A stretch of DNA of 64,000 bases, taken from the NCBI RefSeq assembly GCF_000212855.1, contig NZ_GL890993.1, positions 2,097,939 through 2,161,938 on the forward strand, read 5' to 3'. How positions within the stretch are numbered: position 1 is the first letter of the stretch; each line of letters opens with the position of its first letter. The notes below the pieces were generated by a model. That model saw only the letters and a program-made list of their open reading frames with translations. It did no database searches and had not been told where the DNA came from. Below are positions 1 through 9,070 of this stretch, one piece after another. This DNA comes from Streptococcus sanguinis SK355. Lineage in GTDB: Bacteria > Bacillota > Bacilli > Lactobacillales > Streptococcaceae. The position numbers were made by a program, and so were the translations under genes.

Positions 1-56
1 TTTTAAATAGAGTTAACACACTATTCTTGAAAAATATCCCTTTTAACGGCTAGTTT

Positions 57-332
57 TTAATCTATTATTTCGTCATATAGTTCTTTACAATTTATCCTTC
101 CAAAGCAGCCTTTATAACCAGCAGTTAGATTTCTCCTAACTCCTACAGGCATATTGGGATCATCGTCTTTTATGATGAAACGTTTTTCACTCCCCCATGC
201 TCCCTGTTCTTCATTGTGCTCAAGTACAGTAACAACATTGCTTGAACTTTTTAAATAATTAATAGCCTCTATTTTTTCTGATTCATCTAAAAATTTCACT
301 TGATCTTTTTTCCCATAAGTTAATTTAGTCAT
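57..332 (-). CDS. Small hypothetical protein next to a DNA methyltransferase locus
   Basis: This is a 91-residue soluble protein that I do not recognise. It has no signal peptide or membrane segment and is rich in charged residues. Its C-terminal third carries the only two cysteines (KGCFGRINC), which is not enough for a zinc site. The start is supported by GAGGT eight bases upstream. It lies in the same direction as the two methyltransferase genes, about 170 bp beyond the adenine methyltransferase remnant, and shares their low GC content. It could be an accessory or a remnant of the restriction-modification locus. No restriction enzyme motif such as PD-(D/E)xK or HNH is evident, so no function is assigned. 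Confidence 0.55.
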   Translation of the reverse strand: MTKLTYGKKDQVKFLDESEKIEAINYLKSSSNVVTVLEHNEEQGAWGSEKRFIIKDDDPNMPVGVRRNLTAGYKGCFGRINCKELYDEIID

Positions 333-503
333 ATTTTTACCTCATTAAATTTTTAATTTCCTAAATAATAATTGGTAATGATAAACTCCTTTTTTATCAA
401 ATTCTCTTATAAAGTTATTCCCCCCCTTTTATGACTCACTATCTCTTACTATTTTATCATGAAAACTCTCAAAAATCTATAAAAATAAGTGATATAAAAA
501 ATA

Positions 504-1846
504 TTACTTATAATAGAGACCAAAAAATTTAACAGAATTCTTATCAATGTTTAAACTTCGTGTACTATAGTTTCGTGCAATTGAATAAAATCTTTCAAAA
601 GTTTCGCTACACAGGAAATCAATATGCTCTTTTTTTATTTCTAAATTGGATTTGTTTATTAAAACTGCAACTGATCCATTTATTAAAGTATTTTTCGGTT
701 TTTTAATTACTCTTGGGTAATACGTCATGTTTGGACTCAAATAAACATCTTCCCTTTCAAAATATTTTCCGACAGCATATTTCTCTATCTCATTTTTGTC
801 AATAAAGCTATCGTATCCGTTAATTGAAATAATAGAACTTCCATCTCGTAAGATATTTCTACTTTTTATAACAGGAACTTCTCCAGAAATTTTTAATATA
901 GAATTAGTCAATTGTCTATCTCTGAAGACATCAAATATATCAAACTTCATTTTCGAAGCTATTTCATTAAAAAAATCATTTCTATAAAGTAACCAACTTG
1001 GAAACGCAGAACTCGTTAAAATTTGCTGATTTTGAACATTTTCAATGTCTTTAGTTAACGAATAACTTATTGTCTTATCAGCTTCATGTAGCATATCAAT
1101 ATATAGTGCAATAGTTTCTATCAATACGCCCTTAAAGCCTTTTTCTCCAAAATCTAAAATTCGTTCAATTTTTTTTGCTTTAGTTCTATTTCTTGTAACT
1201 AAAAAATCCGGAGCATTCAAAAAATACTTAGGTAAAATCATCACTACACGATCTGAAATATCCATACATTTTTGTAAAAAGAAACCAGATAAATTTGTTG
1301 TGTTATTATCATTGAAAATAATTGAGTAATCTAATAAACCATTTTTCTTGTTTAATTTTGTAAATGGAGGATTTCCAATTGCTAAATCATATTTCGTTTC
1401 AAAATTTGGAAAAGAAGAACTAAGAAAATCTTCATTTGAATAAATTATCTCGACATTGTCAGGTATATTTCTATGTTTATTTAGAGCTTTAAGAAGTTCA
1501 ATACTTTTTCTATCAATATCATTTACTTGAATGATTAATTTCTTAGCATAAGAATACTTTTTAATAATAATTTCTAAGAAATTTCCCACACCCGCAGATG
1601 GTTCTATAATTTAATTACCGATTTATTTATCTTAGGTAAATATTTCTCTATTTCAGTTAGAATTGAACCATCAGTATAGTAAGCTGATGTATTTATCCGA
1701 CCATTGTTAACAAGTTCCGCAATTCTAGAAAGTGCTTGAAGATCTAAATCATCAGGATTCTTATTAATAAATTCAATAACATCCTCTCTATGATTCAAAT
1801 TATGGTCATTGATAATACGTTTTATTTGTTGTTCAGTTAATTTCAT
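504..1846 (-). pseudogene. Adenine-N6 DNA methyltransferase, frameshifted
   Basis: A class I N6-adenine DNA methyltransferase is split by a frameshift near 1607-1612. The upstream piece (1604-1846, 80 residues) ends KINKSVIKL then stop. The downstream frame, read from just after the break, encodes IIEPSAGVGNFLEI, the expected SAM-binding motif I. Adding one base to the short A run restores a continuous product of about 440 residues. The downstream piece has the catalytic motif IV NPPF and then a probable target recognition region. The gene overlaps the end of the cytosine methyltransferase gene by 14 bp, so the two form one operon. With motif I separated from the rest, neither fragment should methylate DNA. 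A sequencing error, or a strain-specific mutation, is possible. Confidence 0.85.
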
Positions 1847-2996
1847 TTAGAGCATCTCTCAAATTTCTAGCAATTTTTTGAATGATTATTGTTGGTATAG
1901 CTTCTCCTATACTTTGTCTAATATTCATCTCATGTTTTTTTAAGTATAGTTTTTTTTCTTCGTAGCTCATAGCATTTAACTTTTTTTCAGGAATAACTGA
2001 CCATTTAAATGTTTCTGGAATGTTCATCATCTTCATTAATTCTCTGATACTAAATACTCTATCGTCTTCAGGATGAACTGTGTTTTGACTGGCCATAATA
2101 TCGTTTCTAGTGTGAATGCATGGAGCGACTGCTTCCCACTTTTGTCTTGTGTATTTGCCTCCATTTTTCTGGGCGTTTTCTATTCTCTTACCATTCACTA
2201 TTTTATGAGGCCTATTGATTGCCTCCTTATTTTCAAATGCTGAATGACCAGGTTTTACATTATGGATCCAATTTCTCATATCTTCTCGATACACTTTGAA
2301 ATTATGGTATATATCATTTTGATCAATTTCACCCATATCTTTTAGCCTAGGTAAATCATAAATTATTTCTTTTAAAGTTTTTGGTTCTTCTCGCGATGGA
2401 AAAATCTTGTCAAGGACAACCGAATTTGATAAATCTCTTCGTACACCAATCACTAATGTTCTAGTTCTACTACTATTAGCTCCATAATCTTTAAAATTGA
2501 TAATCCTTGACTCGAATATATAATCGGTCTCCAACCAATCGTCAAAAGCTTCTGAGATCTTTTTCTCTTCATTATGATCTATACATTTAGTATTCATAAA
2601 TGATCTCACATTCTCAGCAATGAAAAATTTGGGTTTTATTTTATTTACTATTTCTAAAGCTTCAACTACTAATGAATTTCTTTCAATAGTTCCATCATTT
2701 TTTTTGTGGTTTGCAACAGACATACCTTGACATGGCGCAGTGAAAATAATTACATCAACTTCTTCTTGTTTTTTTCTTTTTTTGAAATTTTCTACAGCAT
2801 CAAACAAATTTTGTTTAACTATTTCATCTGTTATATCTCCAAGTATATATCCATCATCATATTTTAATTTATTATTTGCTTTTTGAACTTCAAGACGTCG
2901 TTCAATAAGTTCTGAACTTGCAATACATTCAAACCCCTCTTCTTTAAAACCATAGCATCCAATACCAGACGAGCTAAACAAACTTATATAATTCAT
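1833..2996 (-). CDS. DNA (cytosine-5) methyltransferase
   Basis: This 387-residue enzyme would transfer methyl from SAM to C5 of cytosine within a specific DNA site. Canonical motifs appear in order: motif I FSSSGIGCYGF near residue 7, catalytic motif IV APCQGMS near residue 88, motif VI AENVRSF near 126, motif VIII SSRTRTLVIG near 176 and motif X GEAIPT near 370. The stretch between VIII and IX is the likely target recognition domain. GAGAGG lies just upstream of the ATG. It is the first gene of a two-methyltransferase operon. Paired m5C and m6A enzymes are typical of type II systems with asymmetric sites, one enzyme per strand; that reading is inference. No cognate nuclease is visible in the window. 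Confidence 0.9.
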   Translation of the reverse strand: MNYISLFSSSGIGCYGFKEEGFECIASSELIERRLEVQKANNKLKYDDGYILGDITDEIVKQNLFDAVENFKKRKKQEEVDVIIFTAPCQGMSVANHKKNDGTIERNSLVVEALEIVNKIKPKFFIAENVRSFMNTKCIDHNEEKKISEAFDDWLETDYIFESRIINFKDYGANSSRTRTLVIGVRRDLSNSVVLDKIFPSREEPKTLKEIIYDLPRLKDMGEIDQNDIYHNFKVYREDMRNWIHNVKPGHSAFENKEAINRPHKIVNGKRIENAQKNGGKYTRQKWEAVAPCIHTRNDIMASQNTVHPEDDRVFSIRELMKMMNIPETFKWSVIPEKKLNAMSYEEKKLYLKKHEMNIRQSIGEAIPTIIIQKIARNLRDALNEIN

Positions 2997-4047
2997 ATCA
3001 TTCCTCTCTTTTATATTTCTAATTTACTTTAAATCTAATTTTCACAAATTTTACTAAGAATTTCTATGGATGTCTCCTCATTTTCGAATAATTAAGAAAG
3101 TGTATAACTCATGATACCGAACTGAACTCTCAAAATAGTTTTGTTTAATTTCTTTTTATATACAAGACTCCATAACTTATATTAGCAAAAAATTATACTT
3201 CCACTTGAAGAGGATTTTGTACGAGTTTTATTATAACAGAATCAAAATTTTCTTACTAGTATTTAAAATAAATCTCTGAATTTTTATAGCGATAATGCCT
3301 AGATTTATAGAAGCGGATAGCAAAATAAAATAGCAATTAAAAAAAACTGTAAATTTTAATAAAAAGCTCTTTTGTATAGTTTATTCAATAGACTTGTTTG
3401 GAAACTAAAAATAATATAGTTAAGCAATAACAAGCATCTTTTTCTCTCATAAGATTAAGTCGTAATAACTGGAAATAATAATCAGGATCAGAAAAGGTAT
3501 CTTTTAGGTCATACTTGAGTACATAAACTCACTTATAAGAGAGAGCAGCACAGAGGCAGTTACCCACAACGTTTATGGTTAATTTAGAGACAAAACAAGC
3601 TCGTCAGTTGGATGCTTCTGATGTGTATTTCCATTATTTAGCACTTTTTAAGGAGAGCATTGAAGATACATTACTGAAAGACTGCTTAATTTTTGTAGAC
3701 TTAATTAATTTAAAACACCTTAAATTCGGATAATAGTTGTTCTAAACTGCATTCATTACCTTAGAACGAGAATCAGGTCACTTTTACCTTATTATCAACT
3801 CGGATAAAAGTAGAGTGCTTAAATGCCAAATTTAAAACTGATTATAAAGAAACATAGAAAAAGGTTTGATTAGCGAATCAAATTAAATTATGACATTATT
3901 AATTTTGAAAGAGATTAATTTTAAAAATTAAATATCTATAATAAAAATAACCTAACAAAATTAATTATATTTCCTAATTTTTTATTTCCTGAATTCTAGC
4001 ATTTTTGTCTTTTTCATGTAACTATTCCATTTTTCTTCCAAATCCCA
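2997..4047. other. AT-rich gene-poor stretch, probably decayed
   Basis: About 1 kb between the methyltransferase operon and the efflux operon has no long reading frame. The best candidate is a 52-codon ORF at 3575-3733 on the plus strand (starts MVNLETKQARQLDASD, ends LKHLKFG), preceded by AGAGG. Downstream of its stop the sequence is broken in all frames. I see no tRNA, clear promoter pair or terminal inverted repeat. The composition matches the methyltransferase genes rather than the flanking core, so this looks like the decayed edge of an acquired segment. Confidence 0.5.
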
Positions 4048-4073
4048 AAAAAGTCTGGTTCCCCAGACTTTTT
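4048..4073 (-). terminator. Rho-independent terminator of the efflux operon
   Basis: An inverted repeat of about 10 bp (AAAAGTCTGG / CCAGACTTTT) lies just after the permease stop codon, with T residues on the minus strand. The symmetric A and T runs may also stop leftward-entering plus-strand transcription. Confidence 0.8.
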
Positions 4074-4079
4074 GTTGTA

Positions 4080-5348
4080 TTATTCATATCTCAGTGCTTC
4101 AATTGGATCCAGTTTGGAGGCCTTGTTAGCTGGCAAGATTCCGAAGAGGACACCGATAGTCGCTGAAAAGAGAAGGCTGATGATGCTGACTGGCAGGGAT
4201 ACCGTTACTGGTGTTCCTTCCAGCATTTGACTCATGGCTGAACCTAGTACAGACGCAAGTCCTGCAGCTAGAAGCAGGCCAATCAAGCCACCAATCAGTG
4301 TCAAAATCATAGACTCAATCAAAAATTGCATCAAAATATTTCCGCGTGTTGCTCCCAAAGCTTTCCGAAGTCCGATTTCTCGGGTTCGCTCAGTGACAGA
4401 TACTAGCATGATATTCATAACGCCGATACCTCCGACAAAGAGTGAGATTCCGGCGATGGCGCCGATAACTCCTGTCATGGCACCATAAATATTTTGCACT
4501 TCCTGATAGAGGGCACTATCATCTGTCACTTGATATTCTCCCTGTTGGAGACCAGCAATTTCTGTTAATTTCTTGGCAACCTTAGGACCAAGTTCTGGAA
4601 CTAAGCTAGTATCATTCACTCGAAGAACAATCTCTGAAATTTCATCAACTCCAAAGTTTGCAGCTATGAGAGTATTGGTCGTAATGGCATTACCACCATA
4701 GACCTGCATGGAGCCAGATGCAGCAGCAGTCTCAGGATCTCTATAAACCCCAATCACCCGATAGTTACTAGCCCCCACTGTCACAATCTTATTGATTGCT
4801 TCTTCAGCGGAAGAAAAGAGGTTCGCAGCCAGATCCTCGTCCAGCAGCACTACACTGGCAAAGCCTTGATAGTCTTGCTGCCTCAGAGCGCGACCAGCAA
4901 TGATTTTGTATTTTTTCACCTGAATATAGGTCATGTTTGCACCGACAAAGTTAACGCGCTCAGCCTGCTTATTTTCGTAGCTAAAGGTTTCCATAGCTGA
5001 GTTGGTCACATAGTAGCCGTCCACTCCCTTGATATGGGTCAATTCCTTAACCCATGCTTCCTGGACCTTGGGTGGCTCCACCACTTCTTCGCTTTCATCT
5101 TCCACATTTACGGAATAGAGATCAGCCGTTTGCGTGTAGGAACCGTCCTTGCTCTTTTTAGGAGAAAAAACAAGACGCATGTTTTTCTGACTTTTGGTAA
5201 AACTTTCATTGACCCGCCGGGTAATGGAATCTCCTAAGGCCATGATAACCACAACTGAAGCCACTCCGATAATAATCCCAATCATGGTCAGGAAAGACCG
5301 CATCTTGTGTCCAAGAATGGAGCTAATGGCAAATTTCCAGTTTTGCAT
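4080..5348 (-). CDS. MacB-like ABC efflux permease
   Basis: This 422-residue membrane protein is the permease half of a MacAB-type exporter. A first membrane helix (about residues 15-38) is followed by a large extracellular MacB-core domain (about 45-290). Three C-terminal helices (about 288-312, 335-360 and 385-405) form the FtsX-like fold. The start ATG overlaps the ATPase stop codon (TAATG), so translation is coupled. Homologues in pneumococcus (the Spr0693-0695 family) form an adaptor-ATPase-permease pump linked to export of antimicrobial peptides. The substrate here cannot be read from sequence. Confidence 0.9.
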   Translation of the reverse strand: MQNWKFAISSILGHKMRSFLTMIGIIIGVASVVVIMALGDSITRRVNESFTKSQKNMRLVFSPKKSKDGSYTQTADLYSVNVEDESEEVVEPPKVQEAWVKELTHIKGVDGYYVTNSAMETFSYENKQAERVNFVGANMTYIQVKKYKIIAGRALRQQDYQGFASVVLLDEDLAANLFSSAEEAINKIVTVGASNYRVIGVYRDPETAAASGSMQVYGGNAITTNTLIAANFGVDEISEIVLRVNDTSLVPELGPKVAKKLTEIAGLQQGEYQVTDDSALYQEVQNIYGAMTGVIGAIAGISLFVGGIGVMNIMLVSVTERTREIGLRKALGATRGNILMQFLIESMILTLIGGLIGLLLAAGLASVLGSAMSQMLEGTPVTVSLPVSIISLLFSATIGVLFGILPANKASKLDPIEALRYE

Positions 5349-6046
5349 TAGGCTAGTCCTCCTTCCTTAGCGCTATCAGATGAGATGACACCGTCACGAA
5401 TGACGATCTGCCGCTTGGCATAGGCAGCAATCTCAGGCTCATGGGTTACCATAATAATGGTTTTCCCTTCTCGATTGAGCTCAGTTAAGAGCTCCATAAT
5501 CTGCTCACCAGTCTTGGTATCCAAGGCTCCTGTTGGTTCGTCAGCCAGAATCAGCGAAGGATTATTGACCAAAGCACGCGCAATGGCTACCCGCTGCTTC
5601 TGTCCTCCGGAAAGCTCTGAAGGCAGATGGTGCATCCGCGTGTCCAACTCCACCTTGGTCAGAAACTGCTCGGCCAAGGACTTACGTTTAGATAGACCGA
5701 CACCTGCATAAATCAATGGCAGTTCCACATTTTGCAAGGCATTAAGCTTAGACAAGAGAAAGAACTGCTGGAAGACAAAGCCGATTTGCTTATTCCGAAC
5801 CTTGGCCAGCTTCTTATCACCTAGCTTAGCTACTTCTTCGCTTCCCAGATGGTATTCACCAGTGGTCGGACGATCCAGCATCCCAATGATATTCATCAGA
5901 GTAGACTTACCAGATCCAGACGGTCCCATGATGGCAACAAATTCGCCCTCTTCAACCTCCAGACTGATGTCTTTTAATACCTGCAGTTCCTGGTCTCCAT
6001 TGCGATAGCTCTTATTAATATTTTTTAACTCAATTAGCTTCTTCAT
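5348..6046 (-). CDS. MacB-like ABC efflux ATP-binding protein
   Basis: This 232-residue nucleotide-binding subunit belongs to the LolD/MacB type. Walker A GPSGSGKST is at 41-49, the signature LSGGQ at 145-149 and Walker B LILADEPT at 165-172. It would dimerise and drive the adjacent permease. Its start lies inside the 3' end of the adaptor gene (17-bp overlap) and its stop overlaps the permease start, giving a tight operon. Confidence 0.93.
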   Translation of the reverse strand: MKKLIELKNINKSYRNGDQELQVLKDISLEVEEGEFVAIMGPSGSGKSTLMNIIGMLDRPTTGEYHLGSEEVAKLGDKKLAKVRNKQIGFVFQQFFLLSKLNALQNVELPLIYAGVGLSKRKSLAEQFLTKVELDTRMHHLPSELSGGQKQRVAIARALVNNPSLILADEPTGALDTKTGEQIMELLTELNREGKTIIMVTHEPEIAAYAKRQIVIRDGVISSDSAKEGGLA

Positions 6047-7193
6047 AAGATTTCACCTCTTGACCGTCTTTCAAGCTATCTGTCGGATTGATGATAACTT
6101 TACTATCCTTTGTCAAACCAGATGAGATTTCTTGATTTTCAGCATCAGCATTTCCGAGCGTCACTTCTGTTTTCTTGGCAACTCCTTTTTCCAAGACCCA
6201 AACATAGTTCTTGTCTCCGTCCATTACCACACTGCTTACTGGAACAATGAGTCCCTGAGTATTGTTTTTAACTTCAATATTGACTGAGAAGCCTTGCTTG
6301 AGCTCACCAATCTCGCTGGTAATGTCAATTGTAAATGGATATTTGGAACCTGAAGCTGTTCCGCTGCCACCTGTTCCAGACGGTTGAGCTGCTGCCTGCT
6401 GGCCGTCTTTCGGATAGTTGGAAATGTAGCTGATTTTACCAGTCCATTTCTTATCTGGATAGACCTTTGATGTAATGGTCACTTCTTGACCGACAGACAA
6501 GTTAGCCAAATTGTATTCGGATAATTCACCCTTAATCTGCAGATTACCATTGCTGACGATGTGAACCAAGGTTTGAGTGGCACCTGTTGTTGATTTTGAA
6601 ACATCGCGGTTGACTTCTACGACCGTACCATCTGCTGTGCTGGTCACTGTCAAGGCATTAAGAGTAGCTTGTGCTTTATTCATATTATCAACTGCATCAG
6701 CTCGAGCATCGCGCAAGTCAGCTGCCTGAGACTCCACAGAACGCTGAGCCTGAGCTTCAGACGCCCCATCAGCTTCTTCGTCGCCAGTTGTATTTACAGT
6801 CACACCATTGGTTTGCAAGTCATGCAATTGACGATCGGCTTTGCTAACCGCCCGAGCAGCTGCATCGTAAGCTGCCTGAGCCTCTGCACTTTTATAAGTT
6901 ACCAAAGCTTGACCGGCAGTCACCTGGTCACCGACATTGACCAACACATTTTCCAAGTCACCCTTGGTGCTGTCATAGTAGATGTACTGCTCGTTGCTGG
7001 CTGTGACATTTCCTGTCAGTAAGACTGAAGAAGCCACTGAGCCTTCCTTGGCTTTCTGAACCAGCGGAGTTGTGTCAACAGGCATCTCAGAAGGATTCCC
7101 TCCGTTTAGAAACATGAAGAGAATTGCTCCTGCAACAACTGCAATCGTAGCTCCAATAATGCTAAATAATTGCCATTTCTTTAACTTTTTCAT
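6030..7193 (-). CDS. MacA-like efflux adaptor protein
   Basis: This 387-residue membrane-fusion (HlyD/MacA family) protein is the extracellular adaptor of the pump. One N-terminal membrane segment (about residues 10-30) anchors it. A lipoyl-like half (GDVTAG-type repeats near 85-100), a helical hairpin rich in Ala and Gln (about 105-175) and a beta-barrel region follow. A Gly/Ser-rich insertion sits near 270-282. It is first in the operon, with GAGGAGG before the ATG and an extended -10 (TGATATAAT) in the intergenic region shared with gor. In Gram-positives such adaptors probably bridge the permease and the cell wall. Confidence 0.9.
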
Positions 7194-7402
7194 CTTTTTT
7201 CCTCCTCTTGATGAAAACGATTTTCTTTTGTTATATTATATCACAAGGCTATCATAATTCTTCTAAAAAAATTTACAGTTTTTCACAAATGGTTGCTATT
7301 TTATCTCAGATAGTCGCTCCACTCAAATCCGTAGCAGATTTTTGCATTCACCTGCTAAAAAAGGTACAATTACCTCATATAATAGAAGGAGATTCTAACA
7401 AG

Positions 7403-8752
7403 ATGAAAGAATTTGATATGATTGCTATTGGCGGTGGCAGCGGGGGAATTGCTACCATGAATCGGGCCGGCGAATACGGTGCCAAGGTTGCCGTTATTGA
7501 AGAAAAGAAACTGGGTGGCACCTGTGTCAATGTCGGCTGTGTCCCAAAGAAGATTATGTGGTACGGAGCTCAAATAGCTGAAGCTATCCAGTATTATGGA
7601 CCAGACTATGGCTTTACCTCTGATAATCAGGCTTTTGATTTTGCTACCCTTCGGAAAAATCGCGAAGCTTATATTGACCGAGCACGTTCGTCCTACGATG
7701 GTAGCTTCAAGCGGAATGGTGTTGAGCTGATCGAAGGCCGTGCCCGCTTTGTTGATGCAAACACTGTCCAAGTCAATGGAGAGCTAATCCGGGCCAAGCA
7801 TATCGTTATCGCGACAGGTGCTCATGCTGCTATTCCAAATATCCCTGGCGCAGGTTACGGAGAAACTTCCGATGATGTCTTCGCTTGGGAAGAGTTACCT
7901 GAATCTGTTGCCATTGTCGGAGCAGGCTATATAGCAGTTGAGCTAGCCGGAGTGCTCCATGCTCTGGGAGTTGAAACAGACCTTTTTGTTCGTAAGGACC
8001 GACCGCTACGCAACTTTGACAGCTATCTGATTGACGGTCTGCTCCAAGAAATGGAAAACTCTGGACTCCAGCTTCATACCCATAAGATTCCGCAAAAGCT
8101 TGAAAAACTTACTGATGGTCAGCTCAAGCTCTATTTTGAAGATGGCAGCAGCCACACAGCCCAGCATGTTATTTGGGCCATCGGCCGTAAGCCAAATGTT
8201 CAAGACCTCAATCTGGAAGCAGCTGGCGTAACTCTCAATGAACGTGGCTTCATCGCTGTCGATGAGTACCAAAACACTGTGGTTCCAGGTATCTATGCTC
8301 TAGGCGATGTAACAGGTGAAAAAGAATTAACTCCTGTTGCTATCAAGGCTGGACGAACTCTGTCTGAGCGTCTTTTCAATGGTAAAACAAATGCTAAAAT
8401 GGACTACTCAACTATTCCAACTGTTGTCTTCTCCCATCCCGCTATTGGGACAGTCGGCCTGACTGAGGTAGAGGCTATCAAGACTTACGGAGCTGAAAAT
8501 ATCCGTGTCTATACATCTAGCTTCACATCCATGTATTCAGCTGTTACCCAGCACCGCCAACAGGCCAAGTTCAAGCTCATCACTGCCGGTGAGGATGAAA
8601 AGGTCGTTGGACTGCACGGCATTGGCTACGGAGTAGATGAGATGATTCAGGGCTTCGCTGTCGCTGTCAAGATGGGCGCTACCAAGGCTGACTTTGATGC
8701 CACAGTTGCTATTCACCCGACTGGCTCCGAAGAGTTCGTGACCATGCGATAA
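7403..8752 (+). CDS. gor: Glutathione reductase
   Basis: This NADPH-dependent flavoenzyme of 449 residues reduces glutathione disulfide. The FAD-binding GGGSGG lies at 10-15, the redox disulfide CVNVGC at 41-46 (Cys41 and Cys46), a second dinucleotide-binding GAGYIAVE in the middle, and the catalytic His438 in HPTGSEE near the end. I chose the ATG at 7403 because GAAGGAG precedes it and the protein aligns with the family from there; an upstream in-frame extension to 7208 crosses the promoter region. It is divergent from the efflux operon, the same neighbourhood as in pneumococcus. It supports resistance to peroxide and thiol stress. Confidence 0.95.
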
Positions 8753-8766
8753 AAAATTCAAAATCA

Positions 8767-8796
8767 GAAGAGGTTTGGTATTCCAGCCTCTTTTTG
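8767..8796 (+). terminator. Terminator of gor
   Basis: An inverted repeat (AGAGG...CCTCT with an inner GG/CC extension) is followed by TTTTT, 15 bases after the gor stop codon. Confidence 0.75.
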
Positions 8797-9070
8797 ACTT
8801 CTGCTACCATTTTATAATAAAGATCATGACCATTCCATAACTTAATCTTTCATTTTACAGACGAATCTTACATTTTTGTAAGATTGTAAATTTTGGCTAT
8901 TTCAGATTCATTTGATATTCCTTTCAAATATCAGTCTAATGGAAGAAATTCAGATTTTTTTCAGACCATAGATTTCTGCATCCCTATTTTAAAGGGTAAA
9001 TTGTCAAATATCCATCAAGAAATTCCAAAGATTATAAAAAGCGATCTATTTATTAGTTATTATATGAGAC

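What the first reader, a model, noticed from the sequence alone, without database searches (positions are those of the whole stretch)
504..2996. Two-methyltransferase restriction-modification locus with one half broken
The m5C gene is intact with all core motifs. The overlapping m6A gene lacks one base just before motif I (stop at 1604-1606; IIEPSAGVGN resumes in the next frame). If a cognate nuclease exists left of the window, losing one strand's methylation should be harmful, so either the nuclease is dead, the frameshift is reversible, or the base call is wrong.
Basis: partly seen in the sequence, partly recalled or inferred. Interest (0 to 1): 0.6.

Follow-up and report, generated by a model that had tools for sequence, protein, structure and literature searches.

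The report
Decayed Hin4II-type restriction-modification system

Summary
An intact m5C methyltransferase gene (2996-1833, minus strand) overlaps an m6A methyltransferase gene that changes frame just before motif I (stop at 1604-1606; remainder 1589-504). The locus is a decayed Hin4II/HpyAV-type Type IIS restriction-modification system. HpyAV and Hin4II recognise CCTTC; specificity here is only inferred. The nuclease gene, which the nearest relative (Streptococcus gallolyticus BI02) carries after the m6A gene, is gone: 171 bases remain (333-503), still matching that relative's nuclease leader. The family profile finds no nuclease elsewhere in the genome, although the four other same-genus genomes with this m5C gene (of 284 searched) all have one. 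The controller gene is also a wreck. The 4.7-kb insert is absent from a 95%-identical relative. Without the nuclease, losing the m6A gene should cost nothing, which answers the puzzle. A base-call error is unlikely (no clear frameshift among 44 compared ORFs) but not excluded; phase variation is disfavoured, as no repeat tract lies at the site. One side finding may be new: the intact 91-aa ORF belongs to an unnamed small-protein family, so far found only in such loci (7 of 13 nuclease-bearing loci found without using it as bait).

The parts
3041..3196 (-). remnant of an XRE/Cro-type controller gene with two in-frame stops in the matched stretch
   Evidence: tblastn to the XRE gene in front of m5C in L003: 50% over 52 residues, E 1.5e-12, two stops; the L003 gene matches Pfam HTH_26
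1833..2996 (-). intact m5C methyltransferase, 387 aa (M1.Hin4II-like)
   Evidence: PF00145; PADLOC PDLC03370, E 1.3e-134; 75% identity to L003
1604..1846 (-). N-terminal piece of the broken m6A methyltransferase, 80 aa
504..1589 (-). C-terminal piece of the broken m6A methyltransferase (M2.Hin4II-like); the ORF starts inside motif I
   Evidence: PF07669 Eco57I; PDLC03382, profile 88-443 of 445, E 4.9e-88
333..503 (-). scar of the deleted nuclease gene: leader and at most about 26 codons of the start
   Evidence: local alignment to the L003 nuclease leader and start scores 84; 1000 dinucleotide shuffles reach at most 64.5. Two mid-gene stretches score 26 and 24.5 (754 and 441 of 1000 shuffles reach them); the nuclease's 3' end is not above shuffles either (185 of 1000)
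57..332 (-). intact 91-aa ORF of an unnamed family tied to Hin4II/HpyAV-type loci
   Evidence: 59% identity to the 90-aa ORF directly after the L003 nuclease gene
1..4046 (.). window part of a 4.7-kb insert that is absent from relative G009
   Evidence: G009 joins the lysS side directly to the sequence matching window 4047 onward; GC of 504-2996 is 28.6% against 43.6% for 4100-40000

Best explanation
A horizontally acquired Type IIS restriction-modification system of the Hin4II/HpyAV kind (controller, m5C methyltransferase, m6A methyltransferase, HNH nuclease, small ORF) was inserted beside lysS and has since decayed. Shown: no nuclease gene of the family is left but a short scar, the controller has stops, the m6A gene is frameshifted before motif I, and m5C and the 91-aa ORF remain open. 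Inferred: the m5C enzyme still works alone and marks only one strand of its asymmetric site (CCTTC, if specificity is as in HpyAV); the m6A mark is absent; loss of the nuclease came first or together and made loss of the m6A gene harmless.
For: The same gene order is present in L003 (S. gallolyticus BI02), also beside lysS: XRE, m5C, m6A, nuclease (itself split by a frame change), 90-aa ORF. The family nuclease profile PDLC03488 gives nothing in the own genome while the same profile finds it in genomes of the same genus. m5C occurs in 5 of 284 genus genomes; the four besides the own genome are the same four with a strong nuclease match. The scar still aligns with the nuclease leader. The controller is a remnant. 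The empty site is seen in G009. Relatives' nucleases show the HpyAV HNH spacing in 11 of 11 sequences tested (against residue numbers in passages of PMC2816704).
Against: Only one genome carries this version, so the order of losses cannot be read. dN/dS against L003 is saturated (dS 1.5-2.1, undefined for the 91-aa ORF), so present selection on m5C was not tested. HpyAV and Hin4II sequences themselves were not at hand, so family and specificity rest on PADLOC profiles, matching lengths and motif spacing. PDLC03488 rang in none of the 14 control genomes, so its only positive control is the genus search. L009 (Ornithinibacillus) has m5C and nuclease and no m6A match in its held genome, so the premise that a nuclease always needs the m6A partner does not hold throughout the family.
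Confidence: 0.88

Rival explanations
1. The m6A frameshift is an assembly or base-call error and the strain has both methyltransferases, with only nuclease and controller lost.
For: A single frame change separates the pieces, and no reads were available. L003 keeps both methyltransferases although its nuclease gene is split.
Against: No clear frameshift among 44 G009 ORFs of 100 aa or more compared over about 42 kb of the same assembly: 42 full length in one frame; of the other two, one is matched over 87% without a stop and one is a 156-aa ORF with two stops that may not be a gene. No homopolymer of 4 or more in 1563-1660.
Confidence: 0.1
2. The frameshift is a reversible phase-variation switch.
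For: Phase-variable methyltransferase genes are known in other systems (established knowledge).
Against: No homopolymer of 4 or more in 1563-1660; the nearest are T5 at 1558-1562 and (TAA)3 at 1562-1571, more than 30 bases from the stop. With no nuclease there is no system left to switch.
Confidence: 0.02
3. The two m6A pieces are joined by programmed ribosomal frameshifting or work as a split enzyme.
For: Both pieces are otherwise well preserved (61% and 64% identity to L003).
Against: The larger ORF starts inside motif I and so lacks part of the SAM site. No XXXYYYZ heptamer in 1604-1700.
Confidence: 0.02
4. The m5C gene has been kept by selection as a working solitary methyltransferase (gene regulation, or protection against a related nuclease). 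This can be true together with the best explanation.
For: It is the only enzyme gene of the locus still intact. In L006 an m5C relative stands without a nuclease relative or a close m6A relative beside it.
Against: No selection test was possible (saturated dS); it may simply not have been hit yet. L006 is a weak parallel: a neighbouring 982-aa ORF on the other strand matches m6A weakly (26%, E 6e-5), and the same genome holds an m6A relative, whose place fits the complete system of L004.
Confidence: 0.3

Closest known systems
Hin4II restriction-modification system (Haemophilus influenzae RFL4; isoschizomer of HpyAV)
   Same: Separate m5C (M1, 387 aa) and m6A (M2, 445 aa) genes preceding the nuclease gene (PMC2816704, sections 5 and 10). 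The window m5C is 387 aa and the order is the same.
   Different: Here the nuclease is deleted, the m6A gene is frameshifted, and there are a controller remnant and a 91-aa ORF that the passages and sections seen do not mention.
HpyAV system (Helicobacter pylori; CCTTC 6/5, HNH nuclease)
   Same: Methyltransferase profile of the fused kind matches both window genes (PDLC03277). Relatives' nucleases share the HH-x15-N-x8-H spacing of HpyAV H294, H295, N311 and H320.
   Different: M.HpyAV is one fused 823-aa protein; here the two are separate. HpyAV is active.
Streptococcus gallolyticus BI02 locus (L003, NZ_NETH01000016.1)
   Same: Same five genes in the same order, same neighbour lysS, m5C 75% and 91-aa ORF 59% identical.
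   Different: Both methyltransferase genes are intact; the nuclease gene is present but split into two frames.

Membership tests
Hin4II/HpyAV-type Type IIS restriction-modification | m5C methyltransferase of the M1.Hin4II kind | tested here: met
   PDLC03370 E 1.3e-134 over residues 2-386 of 387; also the m5C half of the 823-position fused profile PDLC03277, E 1e-133. That these profiles represent Hin4II and HpyAV is inferred from equal lengths.
Hin4II/HpyAV-type Type IIS restriction-modification | m6A methyltransferase of the M2.Hin4II kind, intact | tested here: not met
   Family match is strong (PDLC03382 E 4.9e-88) but the gene is frameshifted.
Hin4II/HpyAV-type Type IIS restriction-modification | HNH nuclease gene in the locus or genome | tested here: not met
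   Only a scar at 333-503; none in the own genome with PDLC03488, while the search works in same-genus genomes. So this is a remnant, not a working member.
Hin4II/HpyAV-type Type IIS restriction-modification | Relatives' nuclease carries the HpyAV HNH spacing | tested here: met
   11 of 11 sequences tested: 10, L062. Nucleases of L058-L061 and L063 were not tested.
Hin4II/HpyAV-type Type IIS restriction-modification | Specificity for CCTTC (m5C) and GAAGG (m6A) | not testable with these tools
   M.HpyAV marks are from PMC3936762 (passages); none measured here.
Phase-variable methyltransferase | Simple repeat at the switch site | tested here: not met
   No homopolymer of 4 or more in 1563-1660; T5 at 1558-1562 and (TAA)3 at 1562-1571 lie more than 30 bases from the stop.

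The most novel reading that the evidence does not exclude
The 91-aa ORF represents an undescribed extra protein of Hin4II/HpyAV-type systems (core E-x-N...(Q/D)GAW..E.R...R(I/V/L)N), perhaps steering or restraining the nuclease. Here it has outlived its nuclease and may still bind DNA or the m5C enzyme.
Probability: 0.4. Interest if true: 0.45.

Novelty: new member of a known kind. Interest (0 to 1): 0.25.

Why it matters
It settles the puzzle: a restriction-modification system that has lost its cutter can lose one strand's methylation at no cost. If m5C is active, the strain should carry a one-strand-only m5C mark at an asymmetric site, a clean natural case of a solitary methyltransferase arising by decay. 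The wider lead is the small-protein family that keeps company with these nucleases and has no name in the libraries searched.

Tried and rejected
Looking left of the window for a nuclease: there is lysS, then a fragment of an ISL3-type transposase (PF14690) and a stretch that reads N; the nuclease's place is inside the window instead. HphI as prototype: searched first (listing), dropped when the HpyAV paper fitted better. Fold of the 91-aa protein: model pLDDT 87.7, but no PDB or viral match at E 0.001 or better. Rfam: nothing in window 1-9000. Viral contigs with m5C as bait: no relative. dN/dS: saturated. Origin of window 3200-4046 not found: no second copy in the own genome. PDB by sequence with the L005 nuclease: no match.

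Rows dropped before counts: L011-L014 and L020 (same places as L023-L025 and L003), L064 and L065 (repeats of L059 and L058), L015-L019 (weak matches to the HNH end only), L006 (no nuclease relative beside m5C), phage record MT838994 (matches only the C-terminal tail of the L059 protein). Not examined: phage record MT835591 and Pseudomonas plasmid NZ_CP030914.1.

Full report
Observation. On the minus strand, window 2996-1833 encodes an uninterrupted 387-aa m5C methyltransferase (PF00145 nearly end to end). Overlapping its end, an m6A gene starts at 1846 and stops at 1604-1606; motif I (IIEPSAGVGN) and the rest, to 504, lie in another frame. Relatives' m6A proteins are covered end to end by the two pieces, and the other differences are small in-frame gaps, so a single frame change close to motif I explains the break. 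Intact copies of this gene exist in relatives.

What the locus is. The PADLOC profiles that fit best are m5C PDLC03370 (387 positions), m6A PDLC03382 (445) and the fused PDLC03277 (823). These lengths equal M1.Hin4II (387), M2.Hin4II (445) and M.HpyAV (823) in Table 2 of PMC2816704 (section 10 read); that the profiles stand for those proteins is my inference. Hin4II has separate m5C and m6A genes preceding the nuclease gene (section 5 read), the order seen here. The nucleases of relatives belong to PDLC03488 (L003 as two pieces, L004 and L005; four genus genomes). They have HH-x15-N-x8-H in 11 of 11 sequences tested, the spacing of HpyAV H294, H295, N311 and H320 (passages). HpyAV cuts CCTTC 6/5 (abstract), and M.HpyAV leaves m5C in CCTTC and m6A on the other strand (passages of PMC3936762). 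Specificity here is inferred only.

Where the nuclease went. In S. gallolyticus BI02 (L003) the order is XRE controller, m5C, m6A, nuclease, 90-aa ORF, then lysS on the other strand. In the window 171 bases between the m6A stop and the 91-aa ORF stand for about 1.3 kb there. They align with the L003 nuclease leader and first codons (score 84; best of 1000 shuffles 64.5). Two mid-gene stretches (754 and 441 of 1000 shuffles reach the score) and the 3' end (185 of 1000) are not above chance, so the right-hand edge of the deletion is not located. The family profile finds nothing in the own genome. It matches 9 of 284 genus genomes: 4 strongly (3 with one open frame; 1, BI02, split) and 5 weakly at E 1.6e-5 to 9.9e-4 over the HNH part only; none of 14 control genomes rings. 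m5C occurs in 5 of 284 genomes, the own one and those same four; in three of the four it lies in one open frame of 836-866 aa that also covers the m6A gene. So this is the only one of five without the nuclease. The controller is a remnant with two stops.

Arrival and age. Relative G009 (95% identical over 12 kb) lacks the 4.7 kb between the lysS side and window 4047; its flanks meet at a short junction between two terminator-like hairpins (the right one also). The methyltransferase stretch has 28.6% GC against 43.6% for 4100-40000. It is most simply an acquired insert. BI02 has its system beside lysS too; whether that is one insertion or two was not tested.

Is the frameshift real? Of 44 G009 ORFs of 100 aa or more with a counterpart in the compared own stretch (about 42 kb aligned), 42 are full length in one frame. 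One is matched over 87% without a stop, and one 156-aa ORF has two stops; neither is a clear frameshift of a real gene, but I did not study them further. There is no homopolymer of 4 or more in 1563-1660; T5 at 1558-1562 and (TAA)3 at 1562-1571 are more than 30 bases away. There is no slippery heptamer of the XXXYYYZ form. A real, irreversible loss is most likely. No reads were available.

Why it is harmless. With no nuclease, the m6A mark has nothing to protect against (established knowledge of restriction-modification). The premise is also not absolute: L009 (Ornithinibacillus) has m5C and nuclease side by side and no m6A match at E 0.001 in its held genome. Nuclease damage with methyltransferases kept recurs: in BI02, and in H. 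[quoted passage not shown]

The 91-aa ORF. It has no match in Pfam, NCBIfam, PADLOC or PHROGs. Of 15 nuclease-bearing loci examined, 9 hold a relative (L003, L007, L024, L025, L058, L059, L060, L062, L063) and 6 do not (L004, L005, L008, L009, L023, L061). L058 and L059 were found with the small protein as bait; among the 13 loci found with the enzymes as bait the count is 7 of 13. The stretches of L008 and L061 end soon after the nuclease gene, so absence there is less sure, though the plasmid searches gave no match in the L061 record. Seven of the nine lie after the nuclease gene and two (L024, L025) between methyltransferase and nuclease genes. Those two link to the window protein only through other members (direct E 0.11 or no hit; E 4e-13 to 1e-10 to L058 and L059, in a database of eight). 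With the small protein alone as bait, viral contigs, plasmids and phages gave 5 records with its core, and 5 of 5 also hold m5C, m6A and nuclease. Wider searches found it in 2 of 284 genus genomes, own included (it missed the diverged L024 and L025), and in 1 of 398 phylum genomes, the own one. The HpyAV paper holds none of five terms I tried for an extra small gene, and the listings of three paper searches on HpyAV and Hin4II terms showed no title on such a protein (with 20 of 620 listed, 66, 88). Its function is unknown. A nuclease-linked accessory role is my guess, and HpyAV was overexpressed in E. coli with only its M gene alongside, so it is not needed in every system.

Noticed in passing
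57-332 and L003, L007, L024, L025, L058-L060, L062, L063: Unnamed small-protein family so far found only in Hin4II/HpyAV-type loci (7 of 13 nuclease-bearing loci found with enzyme baits, 9 of 15 in all), with no library or fold match.
   Followed up: partly
L009:5935-8397: Ornithinibacillus has an m5C gene and a nuclease gene of this family side by side with no m6A match in the held genome: either a different site or a different protection scheme.
   Followed up: partly
L004:8519-11134 and L059:3145-6251: Two nuclease genes of this family near each other, with one m5C and one m6A relative (separate genes in L004, one fused gene in L059, where the small ORF lies between the two nuclease genes).
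   Followed up: no
L003:3252-4489: The nuclease gene of S. gallolyticus BI02 is itself split into two frames while both methyltransferases are intact.
   Followed up: partly
420-426: Seven-C run (G7 on the gene strand) in the nuclease scar, not present in the aligned L003 leader.
   Followed up: no
left of window, L002: ISL3-type transposase fragment at the edge of the insert beside lysS.
   Followed up: partly
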